Shown piece by piece: positions 20,254 to 44,526 of a DNA stretch of 64,000 nt; positions within the stretch are counted from its first letter, which is position 1, and each line of letters starts with the position of its first letter. The notes under the pieces are model-generated. The model saw nothing but the letters and a program-made list of their open reading frames with translations. It did not search any database and had not been told where the DNA came from. This stretch comes from G963667145 sp963676515 [NCBI: Candidatus Cloacimonadota bacterium] (GTDB lineage: Bacteria; Cloacimonadota; Cloacimonadia; G963667145), in assembly GCA_963676515.1 (NCBI GenBank), contig OY781061.1, forward strand, positions 124,001 through 188,000, in the 5' to 3' direction. Both the position numbers and the translations under genes were made by a program.

Positions 20254-20259
20254 GTTACC

Positions 20260-20442: not shown

Positions 20443-20628
20443 TTGACTTTGCTGCGACAGTATTTTCCGAAGAAAATGGAGCTTGACAATATTGAGGACG
20501 AACAAGTTATAGAAGCTGTTAACAAGCTTAATGATAGACCGAGGAAATACCTTAGTTATATGACTCCAAGAGAAGTTTTTGAAAGCCAAACAGGAATAAA
20601 TTTAAGAGAATACGGGATTATGCACTAA
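20443..20628 (+). pseudogene. IS30-family transposase C-terminal remnant
   Basis: Sixty-one codons in an open frame. LLRQYFPKKMELDNIEDEQV, then KLNDRPRKYLSYMTPREVF, is the conserved C-terminal end of IS30 family integrases. The catalytic domain is missing, cut off by the IS256 block. The sequence after the stop (GAGTCGAATTCAGC) looks like the IS30 outer end, placing the border near 20645. Confidence 0.82.
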
Positions 20629-20672
20629 TGAGTCGAATTCAGCAAATTACTCCTATCTCTAAATATTAAAAA

Positions 20673-21341: not shown

Positions 21342-21366
21342 CGTATAAAATCCTATTAATTTCTAA

Positions 21367-23315: not shown

Positions 23316-23331
23316 AATATTCTAAATTCCC

Positions 23332-24204: not shown

Positions 24205-24214
24205 TATTTTAAAT

Positions 24215-25597
24215 TTATCCTAAATGACAACATTTTTTTTCAAAATAGTCACACATTTTTTTTACATAAAAACTATTAAAAATATAAAACCAAAATAAAG
24301 GTATAAAGATAAAAACAATACGCTTATAAGAAGAAAATCTAATTGTTCTTAACATAGACTCTAAAGACCTTCCATAGCCTGAAAAAGAAAAATAAAAAAT
24401 AACTCCATAAAAAAACCACATCAAAGCAATTATTTCTAGAAATCTCCATTCGTATAACTGATTTTTTTTTATATTAATACCCAGAAATAGAGTAAAAAAC
24501 CAAAAAGATAAACCAAACAGGTTTAGGGAAAAATTAGTTTCTAACATTGTTTTGAAAATCAAAAAAATATCATGAAAATTTATAGTCAATGAATCAAAAA
24601 TTTTAGATCTAATCTGCTCTTTACCAAAGAGAAATAAGCAGATTTGCCACAAAATAAAAATAAAAGTAGGAGGCAATAAATAAAGAAAAGCCCTCTTTAC
24701 TCTCTTTTTTCTCCATTCACAATATAAAAGGATACAAAAAATACCTCCCACAAAAGCTATGGCTTCATTTCTTATCCAAACTGAACCACATAACATCAAA
24801 CAAGATAAAATTAAATCATCTTTTTTATTGTCCCTAAAATAAATTAAACAATACAAGACAGATAATGAAGTATAAAATGCAAGGGGCATATTGGTTGAAG
24901 TCAAACTAGAGAAAGCATACATTTCAGGAGTAATAATAACAAACAACACAGTCAAAATTGATACAAGTCTGTTTTTACTATATCTAAAAATAAAATTATA
25001 CAAAACAAAAATGAAATTAATATAAAGTAAGGAAACCACTATTTTAACCGTAGATAATCCACAAAAATAAGCTAAACTAAAAGCATACATAGGTAACAGC
25101 GGATAAAGAAAAAGATTTTCAGTAAATGCAGAAAGATTAACAAACCTATTCAAACAAGTACCTTCAAAAACAATTAATTTTGCTGTTAGTACATAATTAT
25201 GCACAGCATCAAAATTAAAAGTAGGCCAAAATAAAGATTTACGCACAGAAGCATAAATAAAAAATAGAACTATGCTCAATAAAAAAAGCCAAACAAAATT
25301 ATAATTTTTGATGCCAAAATTTCCCCAAAATAATTTAATTTTTAGACAATCTTTTTTTAAATTACCTTTTACAAATAAAAAGAATAACATGGAAAATATA
25401 GAAGGTAAAATGTAAATAATAAACAAATTCAGCTTAATCTGAAAAACATTTAAAAAAAACATTCCCAAAGTTTGAAGCAGTAGACCCACTAAAAAAGATA
25501 ACCCTAACTTTTCCAAAATATTTTCCATTCCCAAAAAGCTTAAAGCAAGATAGCCAAAGAAAGTGATTAATAAAATCAATAAAATAAATGCCATCAT
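24215..25597 (-). CDS. polytopic membrane protein, GT-C-like glycosyltransferase
   Basis: 460 residues with at least ten membrane helices. The loop WPTFNFDAVHNYVLTAK after the third or fourth helix, then RFVNLSAFTENLFLYPLLP, looks like the acidic first lumenal loop of GT-C enzymes. CGSVWIRNEAIAF is also typical. It would use the polyprenyl-phosphate sugar made by the GT2 next door. No named family could be assigned with certainty. ATG overlaps the stop of the upstream gene. Confidence 0.62.
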   Translation of the reverse strand: MMAFILLILLITFFGYLALSFLGMENILEKLGLSFLVGLLLQTLGMFFLNVFQIKLNLFIIYILPSIFSMLFFLFVKGNLKKDCLKIKLFWGNFGIKNYNFVWLFLLSIVLFFIYASVRKSLFWPTFNFDAVHNYVLTAKLIVFEGTCLNRFVNLSAFTENLFLYPLLPMYAFSLAYFCGLSTVKIVVSLLYINFIFVLYNFIFRYSKNRLVSILTVLFVIITPEMYAFSSLTSTNMPLAFYTSLSVLYCLIYFRDNKKDDLILSCLMLCGSVWIRNEAIAFVGGIFCILLYCEWRKKRVKRAFLYLLPPTFIFILWQICLFLFGKEQIRSKIFDSLTINFHDIFLIFKTMLETNFSLNLFGLSFWFFTLFLGINIKKNQLYEWRFLEIIALMWFFYGVIFYFSFSGYGRSLESMLRTIRFSSYKRIVFIFIPLFWFYIFNSFYVKKMCDYFEKKCCHLG

Positions 25598-26127
25598 TTC
25601 CCCTCTCTTATAGAATACACACCAAATTTAGAAACTTTTAGGTTTGGAATTAATTCTTTGTGACCCTTACCGTCAATTATAGCAACATGAGTTACATCCA
25701 TGTTAAGTTCAGCAATATCTTTTTCTGTTCTAACTGGTACTCTAGGATAAAGAAAAAATAGTTCCCACTCTCCTGAACCTAAACGCTTTGATCCATTAAA
25801 CTTGGAATTTTTGGGGAAAAGAATAACAGCATCGTCAGGTGTACTCGCATTCAAAAAGTTTAAGAATTTGTAATCTTCCTGGCATTTAATATACCATTTA
25901 TTTTCAAGAGTAAGATTAGAATTATTTTTAATAAGCTCCAAATTCCCTTTTGCTAAAGAATGATAGACCCACTTGTATGAAGGAACAAAGTTTGAAATTA
26001 ATGTCCATAAAATAACCATGAAAAAAATCACCGCAACATTAAAAAAAAAATGCTTGAAAAAAATATTTTCCTTCATCTTTGGCGAATGATTAGATTTGTT
26101 CTTTTTTTTCTTTTTTTTCTTCCCCAT
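25594..26127 (-). CDS. hypothetical membrane-anchored protein with poly-Lys N-terminus
   Basis: 177 residues: a Lys/Asn-rich cytoplasmic start encoded by two A8 tracts, one membrane helix (about residues 27-47), and an outside domain with NASTPDDAVILFP, FFLYPRVPVR and VTHVAIID. The latter strand pattern is often seen in extracytoplasmic domains associated with polytopic glycosyltransferases. No function recognised. Start has AAGGGTGAG directly before ATG. The A-tracts near the start make slippage possible. Confidence 0.6.
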   Translation of the reverse strand: MGKKKKKKKNKSNHSPKMKENIFFKHFFFNVAVIFFMVILWTLISNFVPSYKWVYHSLAKGNLELIKNNSNLTLENKWYIKCQEDYKFLNFLNASTPDDAVILFPKNSKFNGSKRLGSGEWELFFLYPRVPVRTEKDIAELNMDVTHVAIIDGKGHKELIPNLKVSKFGVYSIREGK

Positions 26128-26128
26128 C

Positions 26129-27082
26129 TCACCCTTCCATTTTTTGGTGCAAGTCTAAGCTGCAAGCACCCTCAGTGATAGCAGATGTAGAAACAACATC
26201 CACACCCGATGCTCCGTAATCAACCAGATTGTTGAGCGTTATTCCACCTGATGCTTCCAACAAAACCTTATCCCTAAGCGATCTTTCTTCCAGCATATCA
26301 CAAAAAGTAGAGATATTACTTGGTAATATATTATCCAGCATAATTATCGGCACACCTTCGTAGCGACTCCTCGCAAAAATCTGTGCAGCCAAAAGCCCAT
26401 CTTCCAGCGTCTCGACCTCTATTTCGACAGGAACTTTAACCTCTTCACAAGCTGTGATGACAGACTCTATCGCCTCTTTCCCTTGAAACTTCTTAATAAT
26501 GTCCAAATGACAATCTTTGATCATTATATGCTTATCCAAACCTATTCTATGGGTAAGTCCACCCCCTACATACACAGCTCTTTTCTCCATCAGCTCACAA
26601 GTTACCACTTTCCGTGTAGCAGCCACCTGTGCTCCTGAACCTTGCAAAAGCTGAGCATAACTTCTCGTAGCAGTGGCTATTCCAGACATTCTTCGTACGA
26701 TGTTCAGCCCCACTCTTTCCAAAGTTAAAAGTGTTTGTGCCGACCCTGTAATTTCTACCAGTCTCTGATTTTTTATTATCTCTTGACCGTCGGCTATTAA
26801 AAATTTTAAACTCACATTTTGCGACTTATACAAGAAGTTTAACTCCTGCTGACCACAAAATACGCCGCTCTCTTTGCTCTTGATGACAGCACTCATTTCC
26901 AAGCCCATAGGTATTACAGTCTGAGTGGTGATGTCTCCAGTACCGACATCCTCACGCAAAGCTGTAGAAATAAACTCTCCTACTTGCCTTGAATATTCTT
27001 GATTTTCAAAGTTAAGATTTTTACCTTGCTGATAAACTTGCTCCACTCTTTCTTTTCTTCTCATTTGATTTATATCTCTCAT
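26129..27082 (-). CDS. nadC: nicotinate-nucleotide pyrophosphorylase (quinolinate phosphoribosyltransferase)
   Basis: 317 residues. It converts quinolinate and PRPP to nicotinate mononucleotide. Visible family features are ALREDVGTGDIT, LNIVRRMSGIATAT, ATRKVV, GGGLTHRIGL, IEVEVETLEDG and ASGGITLNNL. About 25 residues extend beyond the usual N-terminus. It follows the nadA stop by two bases, so is translationally coupled; the order nadB-nadA-nadC forms a full aspartate-to-NaMN operon. Confidence 0.94.
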   Translation of the reverse strand: MRDINQMRRKERVEQVYQQGKNLNFENQEYSRQVGEFISTALREDVGTGDITTQTVIPMGLEMSAVIKSKESGVFCGQQELNFLYKSQNVSLKFLIADGQEIIKNQRLVEITGSAQTLLTLERVGLNIVRRMSGIATATRSYAQLLQGSGAQVAATRKVVTCELMEKRAVYVGGGLTHRIGLDKHIMIKDCHLDIIKKFQGKEAIESVITACEEVKVPVEIEVETLEDGLLAAQIFARSRYEGVPIIMLDNILPSNISTFCDMLEERSLRDKVLLEASGGITLNNLVDYGASGVDVVSTSAITEGACSLDLHQKMEG

Positions 27083-27084
27083 AT

Positions 27085-27984
27085 CTAACTCAAAGCCAAC
27101 ATCTTATCAATACATCCTTTCGCTTTGTCCATAACATCTTTTTCTAAGACAATCTCATTGCTACCTAACTGCAAGCAATCTTTAACCATTTGTAATTCTG
27201 TCAACTTCATATCCTGACAAACAGCATCTGCTTTGAGCGGGAAAAATTTTTTGTCGGGACACTCTTGTCTTAATTTGGCGATCATTCCAATTTCTGTACC
27301 CACTACGAAGCTGCTCGCACCATTTGATTTTGCCACCGAAATCATCTGTGAGGTAGAACAAACATGATCGCAAAGCTCGACCACTTCGGGGCAAGATTCT
27401 GGATGAATCATAATTGGAGCTTGCGGATAAAGGGCTCTAGCTCTTTGCACATCCTTCACACGGATGTCATTATGCACATAGCAATAGCCATCCACCAAAA
27501 TAACCTCTTTTTTACTATTTGCCGCCACATTAGCACCAAGATTTTTATCTGGAACAAAGATTACCTGTTCTTGAGGCAAAGAGTTAACCACTTTCGCAGC
27601 GTTGGCACTAGTAACGCACACATCGCATTCCGTCTTGGTTTCAGCGGTGGTATTCACATAGCAAGCCACTACAGCTTGGGGGTATTTCTTTTTCATAGCC
27701 CGCACCATTCCAGCATCGACCATCTCAGCCATTCGGCAACCAGCTTGTTTTGCTGCCAATAAAACTTTTTTGCTAGGATTCAAAATTTTTGCGGTCTCCG
27801 CCATAAATTTTACTCCGCAAAACACGATGATATCCGCCTGCACATCTTTTGCTTTTTTTGCCAATTCCAAGCTATCACCTACAAAATCTGCCACCTGATA
27901 AATCTCAGAGGGTTGATAATTGTGAGCCAAAATCACAGCTTTTTTCTCTTCTTTTAGTCGCTTAATCTCTTCTAAAATAGACAT
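27085..27984 (-). CDS. nadA: quinolinate synthase
   Basis: 299 residues. It condenses iminoaspartate with dihydroxyacetone phosphate using a [4Fe-4S] cluster. Cluster-ligand candidates are Cys in VFCGVKFMAET, Cys in CDVCVTSANA and Cys in HPESCPEV. Start LAHNYQ-type segment (VILAHNYQPSEIYQVAD) is diagnostic. ATG 27984 has AGAGAAG upstream. It lies 19 bases after nadB. Confidence 0.95.
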   Translation of the reverse strand: MSILEEIKRLKEEKKAVILAHNYQPSEIYQVADFVGDSLELAKKAKDVQADIIVFCGVKFMAETAKILNPSKKVLLAAKQAGCRMAEMVDAGMVRAMKKKYPQAVVACYVNTTAETKTECDVCVTSANAAKVVNSLPQEQVIFVPDKNLGANVAANSKKEVILVDGYCYVHNDIRVKDVQRARALYPQAPIMIHPESCPEVVELCDHVCSTSQMISVAKSNGASSFVVGTEIGMIAKLRQECPDKKFFPLKADAVCQDMKLTELQMVKDCLQLGSNEIVLEKDVMDKAKGCIDKMLALS

Positions 27985-28003
27985 ATTTCTTCTCTATAAT
28001 TTT

Positions 28004-33717: not shown

Positions 33718-34974
33718 TTATCTTATCTTATCGGATATTATTTGTATGACCTCTTGGTAATGGCTGTCTTCTACGACTATCACAGCTGTAGCGGAGATTT
33801 GCTCAAAACTAAAATCGATAATAGGTAAATCTTGCAAATCGGCAACAAAAGACAAAACTTTTGCCCAGTCTAATCCTTGCCCAACTAAGCCCAAAACGGT
33901 GTATTTCTCTTTGTACAATACAAGTTTACATTCCAGCTCTTCGGGTAATTTGTCGGTCTCGTACTTACCATAAATATATGCGTAGTCTGCCGTAAATCTG
34001 CTAAAAATTGATTTGAAGCCTAAGTTTTTCAACGCAGATATATCTTTAGCCAACTCTCTCTGATCTAAATTTTCTTTGTTTATGCTTATCTTAGAAAGGT
34101 TTTTAACACCCGAAACTGCAACCACAGGCATTTTTTTTACTTCTCTTTGGCAAGAGATAGTTGTTCCCTTGTCTTCTGGTCTCAAAGTATTTTTTATTTG
34201 AATAGGAATACCCGCTGCTGCCACAGGTGATATCGCCTCACTGTGGAAAACATTCGTCCCAAAGCAAGCCATCTGCCGAAGCTCGGCGTAAGTTATCTCG
34301 GGTACAAAAGAGGGGTTATCTACAATTCGCGGATCAGCAGTTAACACTCCTGAAACATCCGTCCAATTTTGATAAACATCAGCTTGAGCACAAACAGCCA
34401 AGATGGCACCAGTAATATCCGATCCTCCTCGTGAAAAAGTTTTAATTTTACCATCTTTATCCAAACCATAAAATCCCGGCACTATGGTCGAAATATTTCT
34501 ATCCAAAATTTTTGCCCCTAACTCATAAGTAAGAGAATCGATACTCCCATCATCTCTCAAACGAACAAATTCTGCAGCATCTACAAAGCGAAACCCCAAA
34601 TATTCACTAATGAGTAAGGCGTTAAGATATTCTCCCCTAGAGGCTACAAAATCCTGACTAACTCCCTGCAATATCTCTTTTGCAATAGCATCCAAAGCTT
34701 CCAAAACCGCCTTACCTTCTACTGCAAGCCCCTTTATCATCAACTCAAATCTAGATTTTATCTCTAAAAAAATGTTACCAAATTTTGATTCTTGAGAAGT
34801 ATTAGCAGCCAAAGAATAAAGCAAATCGGTTACTTTAATGTCTTGGTCAAATCTTTTTCCAGGAGCAGAAACCACTACCATAGAAACTTCAGTGACACTT
34901 TTGATTATTTTCGCTACCGCTTTAATTTTGGTAGCTTCTGCTAAAGATGTGCCACCAAACTTATAAACTATCAT
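33718..34974 (-). CDS. lysC: aspartate kinase, linked to ectoine catabolism locus
   Basis: 418 residues. Kinase motifs: YKFGGTSLA (N-terminal), SAPGKR, SRGEYLNA, FSRGGSDITG and WTDVSGVLTADPR. A C-terminal ACT-type regulatory part of about 130 residues follows. It phosphorylates aspartate for lysine, threonine and methionine synthesis. Here it is the last gene of an ectoine-degradation locus, 26 bases after iclR. Together with Asd of the same locus it could run in reverse, turning aspartyl phosphate and ADP into aspartate and ATP. Ectoine biosynthesis clusters are known to contain a special aspartokinase, but no ectA, ectB or ectC pair is present here. Confidence 0.9.
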   Translation of the reverse strand: MIVYKFGGTSLAEATKIKAVAKIIKSVTEVSMVVVSAPGKRFDQDIKVTDLLYSLAANTSQESKFGNIFLEIKSRFELMIKGLAVEGKAVLEALDAIAKEILQGVSQDFVASRGEYLNALLISEYLGFRFVDAAEFVRLRDDGSIDSLTYELGAKILDRNISTIVPGFYGLDKDGKIKTFSRGGSDITGAILAVCAQADVYQNWTDVSGVLTADPRIVDNPSFVPEITYAELRQMACFGTNVFHSEAISPVAAAGIPIQIKNTLRPEDKGTTISCQREVKKMPVVAVSGVKNLSKISINKENLDQRELAKDISALKNLGFKSIFSRFTADYAYIYGKYETDKLPEELECKLVLYKEKYTVLGLVGQGLDWAKVLSFVADLQDLPIIDFSFEQISATAVIVVEDSHYQEVIQIISDKIR

Positions 34975-35000
34975 CTATTTCTCCTTAAAAATTCACTTCC

Positions 35001-35759
35001 TTAAGTTTTTCTAATTTGCTTCGTTATCTCAAAAGCTGCCTTAATCACATCATCAACATGAGCAGTAACTTTTTTTGAGGAAATCCTTATGCTAGGTCCA
35101 GAAAAAGACAAGCATGCCAAAACCTCATCCTCAACTCCAAAAATAGGAGCACTCACAGAGACAAGCTCATCCGAAAACTCTTTATCTTCTACGGCATAAC
35201 CTTGGTTTTTGCATTTTTCCAGCTCTTTTTCCAACTCTTTTCGATCGGTGATAGTATACTTACTCAGCTGGATAAATTCCATCTTGTCCAACAACTTCTC
35301 GCGTCTGGTTTTAGTCATATACGCCAAAAACAATTTGCCAGAAGAGCAAGAATAAAGGGGGAAAACTGATGTTTTTTCAGGATTAAGCATTAGATGGTGT
35401 TCGGGTGATTTAATGCTGTGAATAGCAAAAACTTTGCTCTCTACCATCGTAGTTAGGTAAACATTTTCGTGAACAATATTCATAAGTTTTTCCATCTCTG
35501 GCTCTGCCACACTTTTTAAAACTTTGGTAACAGGAGCGGTACGCCCCAAAGATAAAAGCTTAAAAGTCAGATTATATCCATTTTCACCTTTGTAAATATA
35601 GCCCACCTCTATAAGAGTGGCCAAAAGTCGATAAGTATTTGTCTTATTGAACCTTAATTTTTTGGTAATCTCTGGTGCAGTAATAGGCTGGTTGGCAGCG
35701 ATACACTCCAAGAGACGAAAGGCTTTTCCCACCGAAGAAGACACATTATATTTTGCCAT
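35001..35759 (-). CDS. IclR family transcription regulator
   Basis: 252 residues. An N-terminal winged helix (VGKAFRLLECIAANQPITAP, then LRFNKTNTYRLLATL as recognition helix) is joined to an IclR effector domain with YSCSSGKLFLAYM and VSVSAPIFG. IclR proteins bind palindromic DNA as tetramers and answer to small acids. It sits inside the ectoine locus and is the obvious candidate to read an intermediate such as acetyl-diaminobutyrate. In proteobacteria this job is done by the unrelated EnuR (MocR/GntR). Confidence 0.9.
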   Translation of the reverse strand: MAKYNVSSSVGKAFRLLECIAANQPITAPEITKKLRFNKTNTYRLLATLIEVGYIYKGENGYNLTFKLLSLGRTAPVTKVLKSVAEPEMEKLMNIVHENVYLTTMVESKVFAIHSIKSPEHHLMLNPEKTSVFPLYSCSSGKLFLAYMTKTRREKLLDKMEFIQLSKYTITDRKELEKELEKCKNQGYAVEDKEFSDELVSVSAPIFGVEDEVLACLSFSGPSIRISSKKVTAHVDDVIKAAFEITKQIRKT

Positions 35760-35886
35760 AGCAATCCTTTTTTGTTTTCAAATTTCAAGTAAACAGTTAA
35801 ATTATGAAAAATATGTCAATAATTATTAATTTAGAAAAGTAAAAAAATCTATCAAGCTTTCATTTAAGAAAAAAACTCTCAAAGTC

Positions 35887-36609
35887 TTAGAATTCTTTCT
35901 TGTTCAAACTACTATAAACATAATCTATCATGGTAAGAAAATCAAACACTGGAAGCCCTGTTGCTCTTTGTACAACAGCCCCATAAGGGGGCAGCATACT
36001 GCATTCTAAAAGAATAGCTCCGATGCTTTTATCTTTTTTTTGAAGTAACAACGCTGCGTCTATTACTTCTTTTTCTATGGTAGCCTTATCTAAAAAACCA
36101 GATTCCGCTATCACGGTTTGTTTAAAAGCAGGTGATTCTTCCAATCCCACAATTATCAGCTTATCGTCTTTTTCCAATCCTATCTTCTGGAAAACCTTTT
36201 CCGTGAGCACTTCAGCATTTGCGGTGATAATACCTAATTTTTCTTTGCTTTTTAGCATCGACCTGATAAACGGAATTTGTAGCAAACTAGACAAAAAAAC
36301 TGGCAAATTTAGTTGCTCTTTGAGTTCCTCTTGATAGATAGCCATAAATCCACAATCACCTGTGATTGCCCTTACACCTTCTCTTTGTAGCTCCTTGGCT
36401 GCCTCTATCATCGCAAAAAGGTATTTTGAATCCAATTCAAAAATTTTTTGAACAGTCAATCCTTGCACTTTTTTGAAGCGAACAGGATAATCATAACTAG
36501 TAGCATTTCCCACATCTCCAGGGATAAAAGGACAAAAAGTGTCCAGCAAAAGTATCCCAATAGATTCTCCATAGCTAGTTTGTCCTTTTTTCGCTTTATA
36601 AATCAACAT
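35887..36609 (-). CDS. aspartate/glutamate racemase-superfamily protein
   Basis: 240 residues with the two half-domain pattern of the Asp/Glu/hydantoin racemase fold. Candidate catalytic cysteines lie in ITGDCGFMA (about residue 103) and ILLECSMLPPY (about residue 203). Both being present argues for a cofactor-independent racemase or related activity, not the single-Cys decarboxylase type. Proteobacterial ectoine loci also have a racemase-fold protein (EutA), but the motifs differ and eutB and eutC are missing here. It may convert a D-form intermediate or aspartate. Function not established. Confidence 0.75.
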   Translation of the reverse strand: MLIYKAKKGQTSYGESIGILLLDTFCPFIPGDVGNATSYDYPVRFKKVQGLTVQKIFELDSKYLFAMIEAAKELQREGVRAITGDCGFMAIYQEELKEQLNLPVFLSSLLQIPFIRSMLKSKEKLGIITANAEVLTEKVFQKIGLEKDDKLIIVGLEESPAFKQTVIAESGFLDKATIEKEVIDAALLLQKKDKSIGAILLECSMLPPYGAVVQRATGLPVFDFLTMIDYVYSSLNKKEF

Positions 36610-36658
36610 ACCTCCTTATAAGTAATACAAAAGAACAATTCTGTTTATACAAAAGAAA

Positions 36659-37825
36659 CTAATCTACATCAAAAGGGTAGTCAAAAAGATGCTCAATCCC
36701 ATCATCGGTTACCCTAATACTGGCGTCCAACTCATATCCTACATCTTCCTGCCATATACCTGGAATGAGGTGCAAAGTCATATTTTTTTGTACTATGGTC
36801 TTGTCACCTTCTCGCACGCTGATGGTTTGCTCTCCCCAATCTGGTGGATAATTTACTCCTATCGAATAACCTAGTCGTGCCTTTTTTTCCACTCCGTGGC
36901 GTGCAATATAATCTCGCCAAATCTTTTCTATAGACTCTATACTCACCCCTGGCTTGATGCTATCTAAAGTAGTTTGCAAGCCATCTTTTACCACCTGAGA
37001 GACTTTTTTCATCTTTTTGGGCATCTGTGTTCCTAAGAAAATCGTCCGAGCGATAGGACAATGGTAGTGTCTATATGTACCGCAGAGCTCCAGAAGCACT
37101 GGCTCGTTTGCCTGATAGACTGCCTCCGTCCAAGTAAGATGAGGAGTCTTGATTGCCTCACCGCTCATCATCAAAGGCACAATAGCAGGATAGTCGCCAG
37201 CATACTCGCCCACCCCTTCATACTCTGCTCTCACAATCTGCGCTGCAACATCACACTCTCTTGCTCCAACTTTTATGTATTTTACCGCTGTTTCCATCAC
37301 CTTTTCCGCTATTTTTCCAGCTATTTTCATAAACCTAATTTCAGCTTCCGACTTTATCACTCTCACCCAATTTACCAAAATATTCGCATCGACAAAAATA
37401 GCTTCGGGCAAACCTTTATGCAACACTTGAAAAGATTTGTGAGTGAAATAGAACTGATCAGACTCCACCCCTATTCTTTTTTTTTGCCAACCTTTTGCTT
37501 TTATAATATCGACGACAAAATCCATCGGATGACAAATAATCGAATGAACATAATCATCGGCATACTGATATATATTTTCTTTCGCCAGATATGAGGTTAT
37601 CCTTGCACCATTGGCATCCATCCCTCTGCCTATCCAAGTGGGCTCTTCTTGATCCAAACTAACTAGAACGCATTGGTGAACATAAAAACTCCACCCATCA
37701 TAGCCTGTCAAATAGTTCATATTGGCAGGATGCGACACTATCAAAAGCTCTATGCCATTTGCTACCATACTTTTTTTGGTATTCTCTACACGCTTACGAT
37801 ACTCACTTTTTTCAAAGAGTAACAT
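36659..37825 (-). CDS. doeA: ectoine hydrolase
   Basis: 388 residues, M24 (pita-bread) family. GYDGWSFYVHQCVL, GRGMDANGARIT, HPMDF, VNWVRVIKSEAE, GDYPAIVP, PHLTW and SIGVNYPPDWGEQTIS follow the DoeA/EutD pattern almost word for word, and the length is right. DoeA opens the ectoine ring to acetyl-2,4-diaminobutyrate. It is a cytoplasmic enzyme, placed after the TRAP importer. The ribosome site is AAGGAGGAA. This is the diagnostic gene of the locus. Confidence 0.88.
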   Translation of the reverse strand: MLLFEKSEYRKRVENTKKSMVANGIELLIVSHPANMNYLTGYDGWSFYVHQCVLVSLDQEEPTWIGRGMDANGARITSYLAKENIYQYADDYVHSIICHPMDFVVDIIKAKGWQKKRIGVESDQFYFTHKSFQVLHKGLPEAIFVDANILVNWVRVIKSEAEIRFMKIAGKIAEKVMETAVKYIKVGARECDVAAQIVRAEYEGVGEYAGDYPAIVPLMMSGEAIKTPHLTWTEAVYQANEPVLLELCGTYRHYHCPIARTIFLGTQMPKKMKKVSQVVKDGLQTTLDSIKPGVSIESIEKIWRDYIARHGVEKKARLGYSIGVNYPPDWGEQTISVREGDKTIVQKNMTLHLIPGIWQEDVGYELDASIRVTDDGIEHLFDYPFDVD

Positions 37826-37947
37826 TTTATTCCTCCTTCAAATTGCAAAACACAAAATAAAGCAACAAAAAAGCAATTCTCAATTATCTCTATATTTCTT
37901 AATTTAAATAAATTTCCCTAGCTTGTTATAAGCTATACAGTAGCAAT

Positions 37948-39228
37948 TTACCCAGCCATAGAAATGCTAGGTAGGAATGTAGCAATCTGAGGAAAAACTA
38001 TGATTAAAACAGTTACCAAGATTAAAATTAAAATGAACGGTGGCGTCTCTCGGATTACTTCCAGATATGGTCGTTTGAAGATCAATTGCGCTGTAAAAAT
38101 ATCACAACCAAAAGGTGGTGTAGCAGAGCCAATGGCAGCTTGCAAAGTGACCAAAGTTCCCAAGAAAATCGGGTCTATACCAGTAGAAGCTACATAAGGA
38201 GAAAAGATAGGAGACAACACATAAATTGCCACGATAGGATCCACGAACATGCATGCAATAAAATAAGAGATGACAACTACCACAATAACTTTCAACTGAG
38301 TAACATCTTGACCCATAATAAGAGGCATAAACTCTTGGGGAAGTCGCAAAAAGCTAATCAGCCAAGAAAAAGCTTGCCCCGCACCGACCAAGATAAAAAC
38401 AACAGCCGTGATGACACCTGTGTCCATGGCTATGCTTACCAGTTTTTTGAAATTCAAAGTTTTAAAAAGTACGCCTTCCAAAAAGATAGCATAAAGTACC
38501 GCTACAGCAGCAGCCTCTGTTGGACTAAAGAATCCAGCATAGATACCACCCACAATAATCAGCGGAAAACCTAAAACAGGATAACCCTCTCTAAAAGATT
38601 GTTTTTTCTCTTCCCAAGTAGCTTTTGGCAACATTCCTACCTTCTTTTTTTTGGAATAAAAATAGCAATAAATAGAAAATAGAAGAAAAATAAGCAAACC
38701 TGGTAATATCCCTGCCAAGAAAAGTTTTCCCACCGATGTACTCGTAACAACTCCATACACAATAAACCCAATACTAGGCGGAATCAAAAAAGCTATATCA
38801 CTGGAGTTGATGATAAGCCCCAAAGTAAATGGGCTAGAGTATCCAGCCTTCAAAAGCATAGGTCTCATAGTGCCACCTATGGCTGCCACAGTTGCTTGTG
38901 TAGAGCCAGAGACAGCTCCAAACATCGTACAACTAGCGTTAGTAGTGATGGCAAGACCTCCAGGCAAGTGTCCTACCATTGCCTTAATCATATTAATAAG
39001 CCTCTTGGCAGCTTGCCCTGAAGTGATGATATTCGCACCCAAAATAAACATCGGAACGCATACCAAAGCCTGTGGCGTAAGACCAGTTATCACCTGTTGC
39101 ACAAAAATGACAGGCGAGAGATCAGGCATATTCACTCCTACAAACATCAACAAAGAGCCCAGTATGACCACCATAAAGGGCACAGCCATAAAAAGCATCA
39201 AAATCATACTAATCCATAATAAACTCAT
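37948..39228 (-). CDS. TRAP transporter large permease (UehC/TeaC-like)
   Basis: 426 residues, DctM family, with about twelve membrane segments. Typical stretches are LLMFVGVNMPDLSPVIFVQQ, PMFILGANIITSGQAAKRL and SATPPFGCDIFTAQ. It forms the sodium-driven channel that takes up the solute delivered by the DctP protein. It follows dctQ after 13 bases. A short perfect hairpin (37919-37935) lies just after its stop, before doeA. Confidence 0.9.
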   Translation of the reverse strand: MSLLWISMILMLFMAVPFMVVILGSLLMFVGVNMPDLSPVIFVQQVITGLTPQALVCVPMFILGANIITSGQAAKRLINMIKAMVGHLPGGLAITTNASCTMFGAVSGSTQATVAAIGGTMRPMLLKAGYSSPFTLGLIINSSDIAFLIPPSIGFIVYGVVTSTSVGKLFLAGILPGLLIFLLFSIYCYFYSKKKKVGMLPKATWEEKKQSFREGYPVLGFPLIIVGGIYAGFFSPTEAAAVAVLYAIFLEGVLFKTLNFKKLVSIAMDTGVITAVVFILVGAGQAFSWLISFLRLPQEFMPLIMGQDVTQLKVIVVVVISYFIACMFVDPIVAIYVLSPIFSPYVASTGIDPIFLGTLVTLQAAIGSATPPFGCDIFTAQLIFKRPYLEVIRETPPFILILILVTVLIIVFPQIATFLPSISMAG

Positions 39229-39241
39229 AAAACATCCTTAT

Positions 39242-39781
39242 CTAATATTCGATAACATCGTCTGAATACTCGGAAGTAACCTCTGGAGATATCCAAATAT
39301 CATCACCTTTCTCCTTGATGTTTTTGATAATCGTCAGCGTATACTGTATGCCTGCTGAAAAGAAACCCAGCGGGATGATAATCACAAAAATCCAAAATGG
39401 CAACCGAAGGGCTGAACTTGATTGTGCTCGAGTAAAAACCATAAGAACATACTCAGCAGAAAAGTAAGCCATGGTAAACATCGTAATAGCACTAGCTACG
39501 CAGATAAAATATTCAATGCACTTCTCTACAGATTTAGGAGCTAAATCTATGAGTGCTCCCATTCTGATATGACGACCTTTTCTCGCGGCATAACTCACAC
39601 CCACAAAAGTGATAAAGATAGTCAAAAATTCGCTGACCTCCTCAGCAAAGTAGATGCTGGTAAAAAAAGTCCTAGCAATGACATTTATGATAAGCGTAAT
39701 GAAGAGTGCAAAAATGCAAAAGGTGATACAGCTTGTTTCAAAAAAATTCAAAACTTTTACAACTTTGTTTTCTCCTTCCAT
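39242..39781 (-). CDS. TRAP transporter small permease (UehB/TeaB-like)
   Basis: 179 residues, DctQ family, four membrane helices. FFTSIYFAEEVSEFLTIFITFVG-type segment and AARKGRHIRMGALID are characteristic. It partners the large permease. The 75-base gap after dctP holds a stable hairpin, which can set a higher level of binding protein than permease. Confidence 0.87.
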   Translation of the reverse strand: MEGENKVVKVLNFFETSCITFCIFALFITLIINVIARTFFTSIYFAEEVSEFLTIFITFVGVSYAARKGRHIRMGALIDLAPKSVEKCIEYFICVASAITMFTMAYFSAEYVLMVFTRAQSSSALRLPFWIFVIIIPLGFFSAGIQYTLTIIKNIKEKGDDIWISPEVTSEYSDDVIEY

Positions 39782-39803
39782 AATTCCTCCTTAATGGGAA
39801 AAG

Positions 39804-39845
39804 TTTTGCACAGCCTTTCTTTTTTCAAGAAAAAACTGTGCAAAA
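39804..39845 (-). promoter_or_regulatory. intercistronic hairpin between dctP and dctQ
   Basis: TTTTGCACAG (39804-39813) pairs perfectly with CTGTGCAAAA (39836-39845) and the loop contains a T6/A6 inner pairing. On the minus strand no U-run follows, so it is more likely a 3'-end stabiliser of the binding-protein mRNA than a terminator. Confidence 0.6.
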
Positions 39846-39856
39846 AATCACAATTT

Positions 39857-40903
39857 TTACTTAACTCCCAAAGCTTTCTTAGCATCAGCTATGTCTTTGA
39901 GTAGTGCTTTGAGCATAACATCTGCATCATCGCCTCCCACTTTCTCAAATTTTGCAAAAACTTTTTCAGCCTTGACTTTCATCTTCTTGACTTGATTATC
40001 GTTGTATTCATAGAATTTAACTTTTGGTCTTTCTTTAGCTATTTTAGCTTTGTCATCGGCGTTTCTTTGCTTGATCCATTTACCAGCTGGTATGATAGAT
40101 TCTACCCAAAACTCTTTCATCATTTCTTGTTTTTCTGAGCTTAGAGAGTTATAAAAATCCAAATTTACTGTGGGGATGCTGACGAAAACTTCAGCCCAAA
40201 ACTGAGTAAAATAGTCGGTTACTTCATAGAATTTCATACTATAATCGGCGAACATCGGGTTAATTTGAGCATCCAATAATCCTGTTTGTAGCCCACTATA
40301 GATTTCACCATAAGACATAGGTGTAGAGGTCATCCCATAAGACAACAAGTTTTCTACCAAAAGCTTAGATCCCATAACTCTTGTTTTCATTCCTTGAATT
40401 TTACTGATTTTGTCGGTAGGTTTTTTGGAGGTAACCCATTGCCAGCCTTCGAACATCATCGCAAGAGGAAGGAGTCCTTTCTCTTTAAACTTTTCCTCTA
40501 ACATAGGGAAAAACTTGCCGTTGCGAGTAACCCAATCGATTACCTCTATTGTTTTCTCTCTTGGCCAAATATAGTTCAAACACAAAACTTGAGCTTGCGG
40601 TACAAAGGCACTTATCCATGCATAATCTGAAAAGACAAACTTAGCCACGCCCATTTGACACAACTCGTTGATATCACGATTGTCTCCAATGGTTCCATAT
40701 GGATAGACGATTATTTGCATATCACCGTCTGTTTGTTTTTTCATACTTTCAGCAAAATTGTTTGCCCACACAGTCATAAAATCGCCCTCGATCTCTTCGG
40801 AGGCGAATTTTGCCTTCACTTCAGAACTTTTCCCCCAAAATGCATACAAACCAGTAGTAAAAAGTCCCATTATTAAAACTAGACTTAAAATTCTCTTGCT
40901 CAT
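39857..40903 (-). CDS. TRAP transporter substrate-binding protein, ectoine type
   Basis: 348 residues. A signal peptide (RILSLVLIMGLFTTGLYA, cut near residue 19) leads into a DctP fold. KTRVMGSKLLVENLLSYGM, then TPMSYGEIYSGLQTGLLDAQ and INPMF, resembles UehA/TeaA, which have RVM, TPLPWGEVYGALQT and ENPMF in the same places. It would capture ectoine or hydroxyectoine in the periplasm. ATG 40903 (AAGGAG upstream) is preferred to an in-frame codon at 40921 overlapping the previous gene. Ligand is inferred from these motifs and from doeA next door. Confidence 0.82.
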   Translation of the reverse strand: MSKRILSLVLIMGLFTTGLYAFWGKSSEVKAKFASEEIEGDFMTVWANNFAESMKKQTDGDMQIIVYPYGTIGDNRDINELCQMGVAKFVFSDYAWISAFVPQAQVLCLNYIWPREKTIEVIDWVTRNGKFFPMLEEKFKEKGLLPLAMMFEGWQWVTSKKPTDKISKIQGMKTRVMGSKLLVENLLSYGMTSTPMSYGEIYSGLQTGLLDAQINPMFADYSMKFYEVTDYFTQFWAEVFVSIPTVNLDFYNSLSSEKQEMMKEFWVESIIPAGKWIKQRNADDKAKIAKERPKVKFYEYNDNQVKKMKVKAEKVFAKFEKVGGDDADVMLKALLKDIADAKKALGVK

Positions 40904-40917
40904 TTTTTCTCCTTTTT

Positions 40918-42105
40918 TCAATTTTCTCCATCTTCCAAATACTGACTTACAATCTCTACAAAAAATTTCACTCCGTTTTTCATCACCTCCTCATCTACAT
41001 TAAATTTTGAGTTATGATGGGCATAATCAGAGCCTTTTTGGCTATTCTTACAACCCAGATGAATAAATACAGAAGGTACTCGATCGGCAAAAGCAGAAAA
41101 ATCTTCACTCGCCAAAGAAGCGTATTCACGAAGATTTTTTTCGCCTACTATATTACCCAAGACCTTCCTCGCCATATTAACCATAGCGCTATCGTTCACT
41201 ACTACATCATTTTCCCGCTGCATTTGGATTTGCACCTTACATCCATGAAGTTGACAAACCTGCTCAACTTTTTCTCGGAAGAGGATGGCAGGATCATCGC
41301 TTCTATCTTCTTTAGGTTGGAAAAGATAACGAATAGTCCCTTCCAAATAAGCATTTTCAGGAATAACATTGTTTTTTTGCGAGCCCCCTTTAATTTTGGT
41401 AAACATTATGACAGTGGGTTTGAGAGCACCGAGTTTCCGTGTCTGGATCGCTTGCATAGACAAAATAACATCCGCAGCAGCAATGATAGGATCTATAGCA
41501 TTCTCGGGGGCTCCCGTGTGTCCATCTTTCCCAATAATCTTAATCTTAAACACATCCATATTGGACATAATCGCACCACTTTTCACGCCAACTGTGCCAC
41601 TAGGCAAAAGCGACCAAATATGAGTAGCTACACACGCGTCCACCTTGGGATTGTCCAACACACCTTCCAATATCATCTGTTCTGCCCCTGCTGTCTCTTC
41701 GTTGGGCTGAAAGATAAATTTAACATTGCCTTTAAATTTATGTTTGTTTTCAGACAAAACTTTTGCTGCTACCAAAAGCATAGCCATATGAGCATCGTGC
41801 CCACAGGCGTGCATCAGTCCAGGATTGAGAGATTTATACTCTACCTGCGTCTCCTCTTCGATAGGCAAAGCATCCATATCTGCACGCAAGGCGATGGTTT
41901 TGCCTGCCCTCTTTCCGATAAGAGTAGCTACCACTCCTGTGGTAGCTACTCTCTTTGTCTGTAAACCAAGATTTTGTAAATACGCTTCTATCTTCTTAGC
42001 TGTCTCAAATTCGTGAAAACCAAGCTCGGGATATCTGTGAAAATCACGACGCAACTCAACCAACTCTGGCTCTAAAGATAAAATAGTTCTATCACATTCA
42101 TCCAT
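40918..42105 (-). CDS. M20D amidohydrolase, candidate acetyl-diaminobutyrate deacetylase
   Basis: 395 residues, zinc/manganese amidohydrolase. Metal ligands: LMHACGHDAHMAML, then NEETAGAEQM, and a late YAHHNSKFNVDE. The family includes N-acetyl-diaminopimelate deacetylase, hippurate hydrolase and IAA-amino-acid hydrolases. Within this locus the missing step is removal of acetate from acetyl-2,4-diaminobutyrate, done by the unrelated DoeB in Halomonas. The enzyme fits that step chemically. It is packed one base after asd and overlaps the dctP leader. Confidence 0.85.
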   Translation of the reverse strand: MDECDRTILSLEPELVELRRDFHRYPELGFHEFETAKKIEAYLQNLGLQTKRVATTGVVATLIGKRAGKTIALRADMDALPIEEETQVEYKSLNPGLMHACGHDAHMAMLLVAAKVLSENKHKFKGNVKFIFQPNEETAGAEQMILEGVLDNPKVDACVATHIWSLLPSGTVGVKSGAIMSNMDVFKIKIIGKDGHTGAPENAIDPIIAAADVILSMQAIQTRKLGALKPTVIMFTKIKGGSQKNNVIPENAYLEGTIRYLFQPKEDRSDDPAILFREKVEQVCQLHGCKVQIQMQRENDVVVNDSAMVNMARKVLGNIVGEKNLREYASLASEDFSAFADRVPSVFIHLGCKNSQKGSDYAHHNSKFNVDEEVMKNGVKFFVEIVSQYLEDGEN

Positions 42106-42106
42106 T

Positions 42107-43129
42107 TTAGATCAAATCTCTTTTAATCAATGTTTCGGCAATCTGGACAGAATTAAGTGCTGCCCCTTTACGAATATTGTTCGAAACTACCCACAAATTA
42201 AGACCATTTTCTATGCTCATATCTTTACGAATCCTACCTACGAAAGTGTCATCCTCTTTGTTTGTCATAAGAGGTGTCGGATATATCTCTTGCGAAGGAT
42301 CGTCCATCACCTGTACGCTTTCGGCGGCAGCCAATAGTTCTCTAGCCTTTTCTACGGAGATATTTTTCTCTGTCTCTACATTGACCGACTCGCTGTGTCC
42401 ATACCAGACGGGAACTCTAACACAAGTAACTGAAGTTTCGATGCTCTTATCCAGAATCTTTTTTGTTTCATTCACCATCTTCCACTCTTCTTTGGTATAC
42501 CCTTCCTCTTGGAAAACATCTATGTGAGCAAGGCAGTTAAAAGCTATTTGCTTTGAGTAAGCTATAGGCTTTGTAATCTTTCCTTTTTCCAAATACTCCT
42601 TGCTCTCAGTTGCCAAACCTTGGAAAGCTTTTATGCCTGAACCTGATACAGATTGGTAGGTAGAGACTACCACCCTCTTTATTTTCGCGTAATCGTGCAA
42701 AGGCTTGAGCACAACCATCAACTGAATGGTGGAGCAGTTTGGATTGGCGATAATTCCTTTGTGCCAGTCCAAGTCTTGCGGATTGACCTCTGGCACCACC
42801 AGCGGACAGTCTGGATTCATTCTCCATTGAGCACTGTTATCCACCACCACAGCACCTGCTTTGGCTGCTATAGGAGCCAAAACAAGACTAGCTTCCCCTC
42901 CTGCTGAGAAGATAGCTATATCAACGCCTTGAAAATTCTTGGCATTAGCCTCTACACAAGCAAACTCTTGCCCGTTAAACTTAACTTTTTCGCCTTCTTT
43001 TTCTTTCACATCCATAGGAACGAAAGTATACATCGGAAAATTTCTTCTTTCCAAAGTCCTGATCATCTCGCTACCGACTATCCCCAAAGCTCCCACAACC
43101 GCTACCGTATATTTTTCTTTTTTACCCAT
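42107..43129 (-). CDS. asd: aspartate-semialdehyde dehydrogenase (phosphorylating)
   Basis: 340 residues. NADP loop VGALGIVGSEMIR, catalytic Cys in IANPNCSTIQ, active-site His in VPVWYGHSESV and the C-terminal SNNIRKGAALNS are the Asd set. The usual biosynthetic reaction reduces aspartyl phosphate to the semialdehyde. Here it lies between the aminotransferase that makes aspartate semialdehyde and the deacylase, so a catabolic direction (semialdehyde + Pi + NADP to aspartyl phosphate) is suggested. DoeC, the non-phosphorylating enzyme of known ectoine degraders, is absent. Confidence 0.93.
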   Translation of the reverse strand: MGKKEKYTVAVVGALGIVGSEMIRTLERRNFPMYTFVPMDVKEKEGEKVKFNGQEFACVEANAKNFQGVDIAIFSAGGEASLVLAPIAAKAGAVVVDNSAQWRMNPDCPLVVPEVNPQDLDWHKGIIANPNCSTIQLMVVLKPLHDYAKIKRVVVSTYQSVSGSGIKAFQGLATESKEYLEKGKITKPIAYSKQIAFNCLAHIDVFQEEGYTKEEWKMVNETKKILDKSIETSVTCVRVPVWYGHSESVNVETEKNISVEKARELLAAAESVQVMDDPSQEIYPTPLMTNKEDDTFVGRIRKDMSIENGLNLWVVSNNIRKGAALNSVQIAETLIKRDLI

Positions 43130-43155
43130 TTTAATTCACCCCTTAAAAAAAACTA

Positions 43156-44526
43156 TCACTCTTTAATTTTCCCAGACTCTATATCTTTGATCACATCGAT
43201 TATAATCTCAACACCTTTACTCAATAGTTCTTTTGTGATAACCAAAGGAGGTAAAAGGCGAGCTACATTGTTATAGTGCCCTCCCACCTCTATCATCACT
43301 CCTCTTTGATGAGCGTGCTTTCTAATCAATTTGCCTAGAACAGAAGCTGGTTCTTTCGATTTTTTGTCTTTAACCATCTCGATGGCAATCATAAGACCGA
43401 TGCCTCGCACCTCTCCTACGATGGAGGAAGTTTTAGCAAACTCTTGCAATCTTTTGGTAGCCATATCACCTACTAAATTTACATGCTCCAGCAAGTTTAC
43501 CTCTTTCATCCAGTCCAGAGCAGCCTTACCTGCAGCGAAGGCGATCATGTTCCCTCTAAAAGTACCGATAGATTTTCCAGCAGGCATCGTGTTTAATTTT
43601 TCTTTGTAAGCAATCGCCGAGATAGGAAGACCAATGCCTCCCAAAGCTTTGCTAATAGTTACAATGTCTGGGACTATATCAAAATGTTCAAAAGCGAACA
43701 TTTTCCCTGTTCTGCCTAATCCTGCTTGGATCTCATCGCAAATCATCAAAACATCGTGCTTATCACAAATCTCTCGAACTCTTTTCATAAACCTAGTAGT
43801 CGGGATTATAGTACCCCCTTCTCCTTGCACAGACTCCAAGATCACAGCCGCTGGTTTGGCAAAGCCAGAATGGCTATCGCTCAAAACTCTTTCCAAATTC
43901 TCAGCCGCTTGCAAATCCACATCTTCGTCGGGACAACCAAAAGGGTTTCTATATTTATAAGGAAAAGGAATAAAAGATACACCTGGTACAGTAGAACCCA
44001 CACCATGGTGGGAATCATCACAAGTCAACGCCAGAGCAACACCAGTCATCCCGTGATAAGCTCCTTCAAAAGCTATTATAGTATCTCTGCCTGTGTTGTA
44101 TTTTGCCAGCTTTATAGCTTGCTCCACAGCGTCACTGCCTGTTGGTCCACCAAAAAATAAACGAGTTAGCTCTTTGGGTAGTAACGATTTGAGCGTAGCC
44201 ACCATTCCTTCTCTCTCGACAGTGGGTATATCAAGTGTGTGAGTTATTTTGTCCAATTGCTTGTGAGCTGCTGCCAAAACCACAGGGTGAGAATGCCCTA
44301 AAGCCATCACTCCCGCTCCAGAAAACATATCAATGTAAACATTGTCGTCCTCATCGACCAAAGTTGCTCCTTTTCCAGTTTTCAAACTCATCGGCATCCC
44401 TTTGGAATATGAAACTGCCGAACCTTCATTGCCGGCTTGAAAATCTAATATCTTTTTAGATTTTGGTCCCGGTGGCACCACATTGATAATTGGTGCTTCG
44501 TTGATAGATAATTGTTCCAACTTCAT
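43156..44526 (-). CDS. doeD: L-2,4-diaminobutyrate aminotransferase
   Basis: 456 residues, class III PLP aminotransferase. YIDMFSGAGVMALGHSHP, FFGGPTGSDAVEQAIKLAK, AFEGAYHGMTG, ILESVQGEGG, ICDEIQAGLGRTGKMFAFE and the PLP lysine in TISKALGG are present. The FFGGPTGSDAVEQA stretch marks the diaminobutyrate/EctB-DoeD group. It transfers the gamma-amino group to 2-oxoglutarate, yielding aspartate semialdehyde for the Asd downstream. First gene of the operon, AAGGAG before ATG. The same family works in ectoine synthesis (EctB), but ectA and ectC are not present. Confidence 0.87.
   Translation of the reverse strand: MKLEQLSINEAPIINVVPPGPKSKKILDFQAGNEGSAVSYSKGMPMSLKTGKGATLVDEDDNVYIDMFSGAGVMALGHSHPVVLAAAHKQLDKITHTLDIPTVEREGMVATLKSLLPKELTRLFFGGPTGSDAVEQAIKLAKYNTGRDTIIAFEGAYHGMTGVALALTCDDSHHGVGSTVPGVSFIPFPYKYRNPFGCPDEDVDLQAAENLERVLSDSHSGFAKPAAVILESVQGEGGTIIPTTRFMKRVREICDKHDVLMICDEIQAGLGRTGKMFAFEHFDIVPDIVTISKALGGIGLPISAIAYKEKLNTMPAGKSIGTFRGNMIAFAAGKAALDWMKEVNLLEHVNLVGDMATKRLQEFAKTSSIVGEVRGIGLMIAIEMVKDKKSKEPASVLGKLIRKHAHQRGVMIEVGGHYNNVARLLPPLVITKELLSKGVEIIIDVIKDIESGKIKE

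What the first reader, a model, noticed from the sequence alone, without database searches (positions are those of the whole stretch)
33718..44526. Ectoine-degradation locus that appears to use Asd plus aspartokinase in reverse, giving ATP
The locus holds DoeD, Asd, a deacylase, a UehA-like TRAP system, DoeA, a racemase-fold protein, IclR and aspartate kinase on one strand. Known pathways (Halomonas, Ruegeria) oxidise aspartate semialdehyde with DoeC, which does not conserve energy. DoeC is missing; instead a phosphorylating Asd sits between doeD and the deacylase and an aspartokinase ends the locus. Semialdehyde + Pi + NAD(P) to aspartyl phosphate, then aspartyl phosphate + ADP to aspartate + ATP, mirrors GAPDH/PGK. 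I know of no described ectoine fermentation that works so. Caveat: lysC and asd may simply be the cell's biosynthetic copies.
Basis: partly seen in the sequence, partly recalled or inferred. Interest (0 to 1): 0.78.

Follow-up and report, generated by a model that had tools for sequence, protein, structure and literature searches.

The report
Ectoine-eating operon that may make ATP
This gene cluster looks built to take up and break down the salt-stress compound ectoine, and it carries two enzymes normally used to build amino acids that are probably run backwards here so that the breakdown yields ATP; the same set recurs in several other bacteria, one of which appears to be a cultured anaerobe in which this can be tested.

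Summary
On the minus strand, 33718-44526 is one gene string: DoeD, Asd, M20 deacylase, DctP/Q/M, DoeA, racemase-like protein, IclR, LysC; no DoeC-type aldehyde dehydrogenase was found in the 64 kb. Doe genes with a related Asd and a LysC recur in eight further genomes: seven spirochaetes and a 'Deltaproteobacteria' MAG. In four spirochaetes the operon is unbroken and ends in LysC; one is, by its 4,653,970-bp length, Sediminispirochaeta smaragdinae. The nine doe-type Asds form one clade. Six spirochaetes also carry a separate bifunctional (ThrA-type) aspartokinase and four of these a confirmed second Asd, so there the operon copies are extra. Best reading: aspartate semialdehyde + Pi + NAD(P) to aspartyl phosphate, then ADP to ATP, a GAPDH/PGK-like module in the direction a review calls nonphysiological. 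Direction and ATP yield are inferred, not shown. Two possible signatures (NAD-type loop in Asd, eroded ACT domains in LysC) are real but also occur in spirochaete enzymes not seen beside doe genes, so they do not decide it. Generic aldehyde dehydrogenases exist elsewhere in several of these genomes.

The parts
43156..44526 (-). DoeD-like class III aminotransferase (diaminobutyrate to aspartate semialdehyde)
   Evidence: diaminobutyrate--2-oxoglutarate transaminase subfamily NF005393 425 bits (cut-off 671); 71-74% to the DoeD of the relatives, 67% in G003
42107..43129 (-). Asd, phosphorylating aspartate-semialdehyde dehydrogenase, doe-type
   Evidence: TIGR01296 449 bits, over cut-off 324; catalytic and phosphate-binding positions kept; in the doe clade, SH-aLRT 99
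40918..42105 (-). M20 amidohydrolase, probable N-acetyl-diaminobutyrate deacetylase in place of DoeB
   Evidence: CpsA 383 bits (cut-off 500), DoeB2 296 bits (cut-off 550); substrate inferred from context
39857..40921 (-). DctP, TRAP substrate-binding protein of UehA/TeaA type
   Evidence: best PDB matches 3fxb (1.2e-46), 3gyy, 2vpn
39242..39781 (-). DctQ, TRAP small permease subunit
   Evidence: PF04290
37948..39228 (-). DctM, TRAP large permease subunit
   Evidence: TIGR00786 over cut-off
36659..37825 (-). DoeA/EutD-like ectoine hydrolase (M24)
   Evidence: best PDB matches 6twk, 6yo9, 6twj (1.8e-103); TIGR02993 438 bits (cut-off 613)
35887..36609 (-). Asp/Glu racemase-like protein, PRK07475 family; role unknown, recurrent in the related operons
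   Evidence: NF005679 298 bits, over cut-off 231
35001..35759 (-). IclR-family regulator
   Evidence: PF01614, PF09339
33718..34974 (-). LysC, aspartokinase with intact kinase motifs and a divergent regulatory region; inferred ATP-forming step
   Evidence: PF00696 only, no ACT family hit; PRK09034 312 bits over residues 1-305 (cut-off 434); motifs

Best explanation
An operon for ectoine catabolism, probably anaerobic, with an energy-conserving last step. A UehA/TeaA-like TRAP importer brings ectoine in; DoeA opens the ring to N-acetyl-diaminobutyrate; the M20 enzyme frees acetate; DoeD transaminates diaminobutyrate to aspartate semialdehyde. Then, in place of DoeC, the operon's own Asd works in the oxidative, phosphorylating direction (semialdehyde + Pi + NAD(P)+ to aspartyl phosphate + NAD(P)H) and its own LysC passes the phosphate to ADP (aspartate + ATP), the logic of GAPDH and phosphoglycerate kinase. 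Shown here: the gene set, its conservation in other genomes, extra gene copies in most checked relatives, intact residues. Inferred: substrates, direction, ATP yield, coenzyme, anaerobic life of the window's organism.
For: Unbroken operon IclR-DoeD-Asd-M20-DctP-DctQ-DctM-racemase-DoeA-EutB-EutC-DoeA2-LysC in G248, G351, G394, G400; same genes, split or rearranged, in G004, G017, G003, and without a neighbouring LysC in G005. Nine doe Asds form one clade, SH-aLRT 99. Separate ThrA-type aspartokinase over the NF006959 cut-off in G394, G005, G017, G248, G351, and in G400 by an 862-aa ORF with both domains; second Asd over cut-off in G394, G005, G017, G351. No aldehyde dehydrogenase in the window or in the 3 of 80 DoeA loci that carry Asd or LysC, against 25 of the other 77. 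Residues for catalysis and phosphate binding kept in 9 of 9 doe Asds (roles). Running both enzymes forward would spend ATP to make what ectoine already delivers.
Against: No biochemical or expression data. The window's genome could not be searched. G003 and G004 show only one aspartokinase and G248 only one Asd. G005's LysC lies among unrelated genes. Doe-associated LysCs are not a clade (AU p 0.001). The NAD-type loop and ACT erosion are shared with enzymes not seen beside doe genes. Generic ALDHs exist elsewhere, e.g. five of 283-596 bits in G394, and could oxidise the semialdehyde.
Confidence: 0.7

Rival explanations
1. Asd and LysC are ordinary biosynthetic copies for the aspartate family that happen to sit beside a doe operon, or serve both roles.
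For: Only copies found: LysC in G003 and G004, Asd in G248. Gudongella has a LysC-Asd-HomDH operon of the same LysC class away from doe genes. LysC and Asd of the window's genome could not be counted.
Against: Separate ThrA-type aspartokinases in six spirochaetes and a confirmed second Asd in four of them; same operon place kept in distant genomes; feedback motifs lost, though not only here.
Confidence: 0.15
2. Operon Asd oxidises the semialdehyde, but LysC does not make ATP: aspartyl phosphate or the acyl-enzyme is hydrolysed, or a generic ALDH does the oxidation, and LysC has another role.
For: Generic ALDHs in the genomes; G005's LysC is not beside the doe genes.
Against: LysC is the last gene of four unbroken operons and of the window's string; kinase motifs intact; all ALDHs compared (17 loci) are at most 35% identical to the two reference enzymes (two full-length G394 ALDHs were not fetched).
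Confidence: 0.1
3. The string makes diaminobutyrate or ectoine: LysC and Asd run forward and DoeD works as EctB, LysC being an Ask_Ect-like enzyme.
For: ask_ect genes sit in some ectABC clusters, and that group also lacks feedback residues (PMC5924519 passages).
Against: Importer, hydrolase and deacylase are catabolic. The window LysC scores 61 bits to NF006614/PRK09181 (which I recall as the Ask_Ect-like model) against 312 to PRK09034. No ectoine synthase or acetyltransferase family came up among the window proteins scanned.
Confidence: 0.05

Closest known systems
Doe/Eut ectoine catabolism of Halomonas elongata, Ruegeria pomeroyi, Sinorhizobium meliloti (PMC3187862, PMC5924519 passages)
   Same: Ectoine hydrolase, deacetylation, diaminobutyrate transaminase, and a TRAP importer as in Ruegeria
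   Different: M20 enzyme in place of DoeB/EutE; Asd plus LysC in place of DoeC/Ssd; IclR in place of EnuR/AsnC
Thermodesulfobacteriota and Gram-positive putative ectoine clusters of the 2026 EutD survey (PMC13188858, abstract, section 8 and term passages)
   Same: Clusters without eutE and ssd, often two eutD genes; TRAP, EutB, EutC
   Different: The text has no mention of aspartokinase; its one mention of semialdehyde concerns homoserine formation. Figures and supplements not seen.
GAPDH and phosphoglycerate kinase of glycolysis
   Same: Aldehyde oxidised to an acyl phosphate, then phosphate passed to ADP; PMC3276109 likens the reverse Asd reaction to GAPDH
   Different: Other substrate and other kinase family; flow in this direction unproven in cells
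Ask_Ect, the aspartokinase of ectoine biosynthesis clusters (PMC5924519 passages)
   Same: A pathway-dedicated extra aspartokinase without feedback motifs
   Different: Other aspartokinase subfamily by NCBIfam score and the opposite direction proposed

Membership tests
Doe/Eut ectoine catabolic pathway | Ectoine hydrolase DoeA/EutD | tested here: met
   Best PDB matches are solved DoeA; NCBIfam score 438 is under the equivalog cut-off 613, so met by kinship, not by cut-off
Doe/Eut ectoine catabolic pathway | Deacetylase DoeB/EutE of the succinylglutamate-desuccinylase type | tested here: not met
   No DoeB hit in the window; an M20 enzyme, 296 bits to DoeB2 (cut-off 550), stands in
Doe/Eut ectoine catabolic pathway | Diaminobutyrate transaminase DoeD/Atf | tested here: met
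   Best family is diaminobutyrate--2-oxoglutarate transaminase, below its cut-off
Doe/Eut ectoine catabolic pathway | DoeC/Ssd aldehyde dehydrogenase in the cluster | tested here: not met
   None found in 64 kb
Doe/Eut ectoine catabolic pathway | Ectoine importer | tested here: met
   DctP closest to UehA and TeaA among solved structures; binding not tested
Ask_Ect aspartokinases | Membership of the Ask_Ect subfamily | tested here: not met
   NF006614 61 bits against PRK09034 312 bits; that NF006614 stands for Ask_Ect is recalled
Phosphorylating Asd (asd_B) | Catalytic Cys, His, Arg and phosphate-binding Arg and Lys | tested here: met
   9 of 9 doe Asds; roles from PMC3276109 passages, matched by alignment spacing
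ATP-forming Asd/LysC module (GAPDH/PGK-like) | ATP formed from semialdehyde, NAD(P), Pi and ADP | not testable with these tools
   Needs purified enzymes or cultures
ATP-forming Asd/LysC module (GAPDH/PGK-like) | Copies separate from the biosynthetic ones | tested here: inconclusive
   LysC: extra in G394, G005, G017, G248, G351 and, by ORF, G400, but only one aspartokinase in G003 and G004; Asd: extra in G394, G005, G017, G351 and G004, not in G248; window not testable

The most novel reading that the evidence does not exclude
Asd and aspartokinase, taken as anabolic, form a dedicated catabolic pair in anaerobic bacteria that conserves energy by substrate-level phosphorylation at aspartyl phosphate, probably NAD-linked, and so makes ectoine (and, with EutB/EutC, hydroxyectoine) a fermentable substrate in saline sediments and brines; Sediminispirochaeta smaragdinae would be one such organism.
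Probability: 0.6. Interest if true: 0.85.

Novelty: new variant of a known kind. Interest (0 to 1): 0.73.

Why it matters
The ectoine breakdown routes in the papers read here end in DoeC/Ssd, a dehydrogenase that stores no energy at that step. Gaining one ATP there would explain how strict anaerobes can live on ectoine. It would put a two-enzyme module to use in the direction a review calls nonphysiological, and would explain extra asd and lysC genes that annotation calls biosynthetic. If G394 is the cultured Sediminispirochaeta smaragdinae, as its length says, this can be tested at the bench now.

Tried and rejected
Coenzyme switch as proof of catabolism: rejected. All 9 doe Asds have Asp at position 40 and no basic residue at 43, but 10 of 34 other asd_B have Asp40 too and only 11 of 34 have Arg or Lys at 43. 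An earlier count said 10 of 10; the right count is 9 of 9.

ACT-domain erosion as proof: rejected, shared with twelve spirochaete LysCs not seen beside doe genes, and the ten doe-associated LysCs are not a clade (the window LysC is a long branch, which can disturb that test). 'Not seen beside doe genes' rests mostly on stretches of about 4 kb; none of those genomes had a doe-type Asd, if the two draws of 392 are the same, as the handles suggest.

AlphaFold models of Asd and LysC were poor (mean pLDDT 69.9 and 69.0, five and six sequences); no fold search was run with them. Aspartase: full-length relatives in 5 of 8 genomes at 413-484 bits, under the aspA cut-off 681, so aspartase and fumarase are not told apart. 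Taxonomy of the window: its RNase Y matched 21 of 24 genomes, at 39-48% identity apart from 56% over 297 residues in G024 and 33% in G022; no assignment made. Bacillota: the doe-Asd model over 398 genomes of G001's phylum gave one hit at E 1e-155 or better, 521 bits, under the doe group. Phylum of G004: the doe-LysC model over 395 genomes gave G004 at 704 bits and nothing else above 333. Equilibrium constants: not found.

Searches behind the statement that the route was not found in print: (open-licence papers; listings of the best 2-20 papers seen), and passages of PMC13188858, PMC5924519, PMC7192451, PMC3187862. Subscription papers and preprints were not covered.
Full report
Observation. Ten open minus-strand genes fill 33718-44526: DoeD, Asd, M20, DctP, DctQ, DctM, DoeA, a racemase-like PRK07475 protein, IclR, LysC. 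Spacing is operon-like and none of the terminator-like sites found falls in the gaps. G+C of the string (39.4%) is that of its neighbours (38.8 and 40.5%). No aldehyde dehydrogenase, EutB, EutC or second DoeA was found in the 64 kb. Ectoine as substrate rests on two comparisons: the binding protein's best solved relatives are 3fxb, 3gyy and 2vpn, of which PMC5924519 passages name 3FXB as UehA and 2VPN as TeaA with ectoine, and DoeA's best are the solved ectoine hydrolases. Several proteins score below curated NCBIfam cut-offs, so this is a divergent branch and substrates are inferred.

Recurrence in DoeA loci. Of these 80, three carry Asd and/or LysC: L008 both, L009 Asd, L078 LysC. None of the three has an aldehyde dehydrogenase hit, against 25 of the other 77; many loci are cut by contig ends. 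Contigs of the same genomes added to this. G017 has IclR-IclR-DoeD-Asd-M20-DctP-DctQ-DctM-racemase-DoeA-EutB-EutC, cut at the contig end, and EutC-DoeA2-LysC, cut at the start, on another contig. G003 has IclR-DoeD-Asd on a 3.5-kb contig and LysC about 280 bp before EutC on another. G004, the 'Deltaproteobacteria' MAG tcs-42, has all of them on one contig, with LysC about 9.4 kb downstream of DoeA.

Wider survey. A model of five doe Asds over 392 genomes of G005's phylum found five genomes at 626.7 bits or more, namely G005 (itself in the model) and the new G248, G351, G394 and G400, then a gap to 527. In all four new ones the operon is complete and unbroken: IclR (two in G394 and G400)-DoeD-Asd-M20-DctP-DctQ-DctM-racemase-DoeA-EutB-EutC-DoeA2-LysC. 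So of nine loci with a doe-type Asd, LysC is in the same unbroken string in five (window and these four), in doe context but separated in three (G004, G017, G003), and elsewhere, among unrelated genes, in one (G005). G002, a Sediminispirochaeta MAG with a DoeA, has a LysC of the same kind without doe neighbours and no Asd found. The window's set lacks EutB, EutC and DoeA2, which fits ectoine rather than hydroxyectoine.

A culture. G394 is one contig of 4,653,970 bases. The published chromosome of Spirochaeta (now Sediminispirochaeta) smaragdinae is 4,653,970 bp, from a strictly anaerobic, obligately halophilic bacterium (PMC3035371 passages).

Extra copies. A bifunctional aspartokinase/homoserine dehydrogenase scores over the NF006959 cut-off of 726 in G394 (966), G005 (895) and G017 (952), and in G248 (796), G351 (788) and the partial G002 gene (850). 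G400 has an 862-aa ORF with both domains, not scanned. An asd_EA-type Asd is over its cut-off in G394 (two copies), G351, G005 and G017; G351 also has a second asd_B, G004 has one, and G400 and G003 have unscanned candidates. Against: G248 shows only the operon Asd and an ArgC, and G003 and G004 only one aspartokinase, with stand-alone homoserine dehydrogenases. Completeness of these genomes was not given. For the window the caveat stands, since no whole genome is held.

Aldehyde dehydrogenases elsewhere. PF00171 hits are found in 8 of 8 genomes, including ProA- or HisD-like weak ones. G394 has five of 283 bits or more; G248 has one such (281 bits) and G005's best is 128. In the 17 loci compared, identity to the two reference ALDHs was at most 35%. 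A generic enzyme could still oxidise the semialdehyde.

Enzyme features. The window Asd keeps Cys132, Gln159, Arg238, His245, Arg103, Glu214 and Lys217, as do 9 of 9 doe Asds. By alignment and spacing these match the nucleophile, acid-base catalyst, substrate-binding and phosphate-binding residues of PMC3276109 (passages), which speaks for a phosphorylating enzyme. The loop that in S. pneumoniae Asd carries Ser37 and Arg39 at the adenine (section 7; alignment) reads Val41 and Glu43 in the window, after Asp40. 9 of 9 doe Asds have Asp40 and none a basic residue at 43. This suggests NAD use, but 10 of 34 other asd_B share Asp40, and only 11 of 34 have Arg or Lys at 43. The nine doe Asds are one clade in a quick tree of 43 (SH-aLRT 99), with seven other spirochaete Asds as sisters. 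LysC keeps its kinase motifs. It has lost the regulatory motifs that the Gudongella LysC keeps; so have the other doe-associated LysCs, but so have twelve spirochaete LysCs not seen beside doe genes. The ten doe-associated LysCs are nested among these and are not a clade (AU p 0.00125). LysC was thus probably recruited from, or exchanged within, a spirochaete LysC group.

Mechanism. The conserved neighbours deliver aspartate semialdehyde. The known next enzyme, DoeC (PMC3187862 passages), is missing from the string, and the two enzymes that link semialdehyde to aspartate through aspartyl phosphate are there instead. Forward they would spend ATP to make what ectoine already provides; in reverse they store energy. 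From recall only (Black and Wright 1955, not seen here), the kinase equilibrium strongly favours ATP and the dehydrogenase step is near balance at neutral pH, so the pair should be feasible. PMC3276109 calls that Asd direction reverse and nonphysiological, and like GAPDH. The electron sink is open. In G004 the genes between DoeA and LysC include a GDH-like dehydrogenase, a fumarate-reductase-type flavoprotein and an iron-sulfur/CCG protein, which would fit aspartate to fumarate to succinate, but aspartase could not be settled.

Other routes. Bacillaceae loci carry homoserine dehydrogenase, a cystathionine-synthase-like enzyme and an ALDH (also in PMC13188858 section 8). Two clostridial-type loci and several haloarchaeal ones carry relatives of aldehyde ferredoxin oxidoreductase. 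Lineages seem to have solved the semialdehyde step in different ways.

Novelty. Nine searches of the open-licence library showed no paper proposing Asd plus aspartokinase for ectoine breakdown in the listings seen. The 2026 EutD survey (abstract, section 8, term passages) describes clusters without eutE and ssd; its text holds no 'aspartokinase' or 'aspartate kinase'. Its figures and supplements were not seen. Verdict: a new variant of a known pathway, with a specific and testable energy-conserving step. I lowered confidence slightly (0.7) because G003, G004 and G248 leave a dual role open and LysC is not a separate clade.

Noticed in passing
L020 15825-17732; L043 16112-18013; also L066, L068, L072 and L002 8240-9901: Relatives of aldehyde ferredoxin oxidoreductase lie in ectoine loci of Peptoclostridium litorale, a Syntrophomonadaceae MAG and haloarchaea: perhaps another energy-saving way to oxidise the semialdehyde.
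   Followed up: partly
L153 10250-11998 and L151 3-7272 (G004): Between DoeA and LysC of MAG tcs-42: a 583-aa protein without family, a GDH-like dehydrogenase, a proline-racemase relative, a TfrA-like fumarate reductase flavoprotein, a Fer2/CCG iron-sulfur protein and a Zn alcohol dehydrogenase; a possible electron sink.
   Followed up: partly
L001, L014, L017 and other Bacillaceae loci: Ectoine loci with a cystathionine-synthase-like enzyme, homoserine dehydrogenase and ALDH; route unknown.
   Followed up: no
L215-L218, L220-L226, L229: Twelve spirochaete LysCs with lost ACT motifs and no doe neighbours in about 4 kb; their regulation or role is unexplained.
   Followed up: partly
L187, L189, L191, L193, L152, L150: A second DoeA copy (43-48% to the window DoeA) directly after EutC; perhaps specific for a hydroxyectoine intermediate.
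   Followed up: no
window 2067-3569 (-) and 4640-5233 (-): Beta-eliminating lyase (tryptophanase or tyrosine phenol-lyase type) and a formiminotransferase-cyclodeaminase domain protein: hints of amino-acid fermentation.
   Followed up: no
window 55720-60630 (-): 1636-aa PARCEL-repeat surface protein, NF045896 591 bits, over cut-off.
   Followed up: no
window 16321-20170: A DUF772 transposase-domain protein (16321-17934, +) and an IS256 transposase (18962-20170, -) beside a low-G+C stretch (28-34%, 20001-28000) with radical SAM, flippase-like and glycosyltransferase genes.
   Followed up: no
window 61645-63282 (-): 545-aa protein that matches the ArsG permease family in its N-terminal part (over cut-off) and SaoE-type efflux permeases in its C-terminal part.
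   Followed up: no
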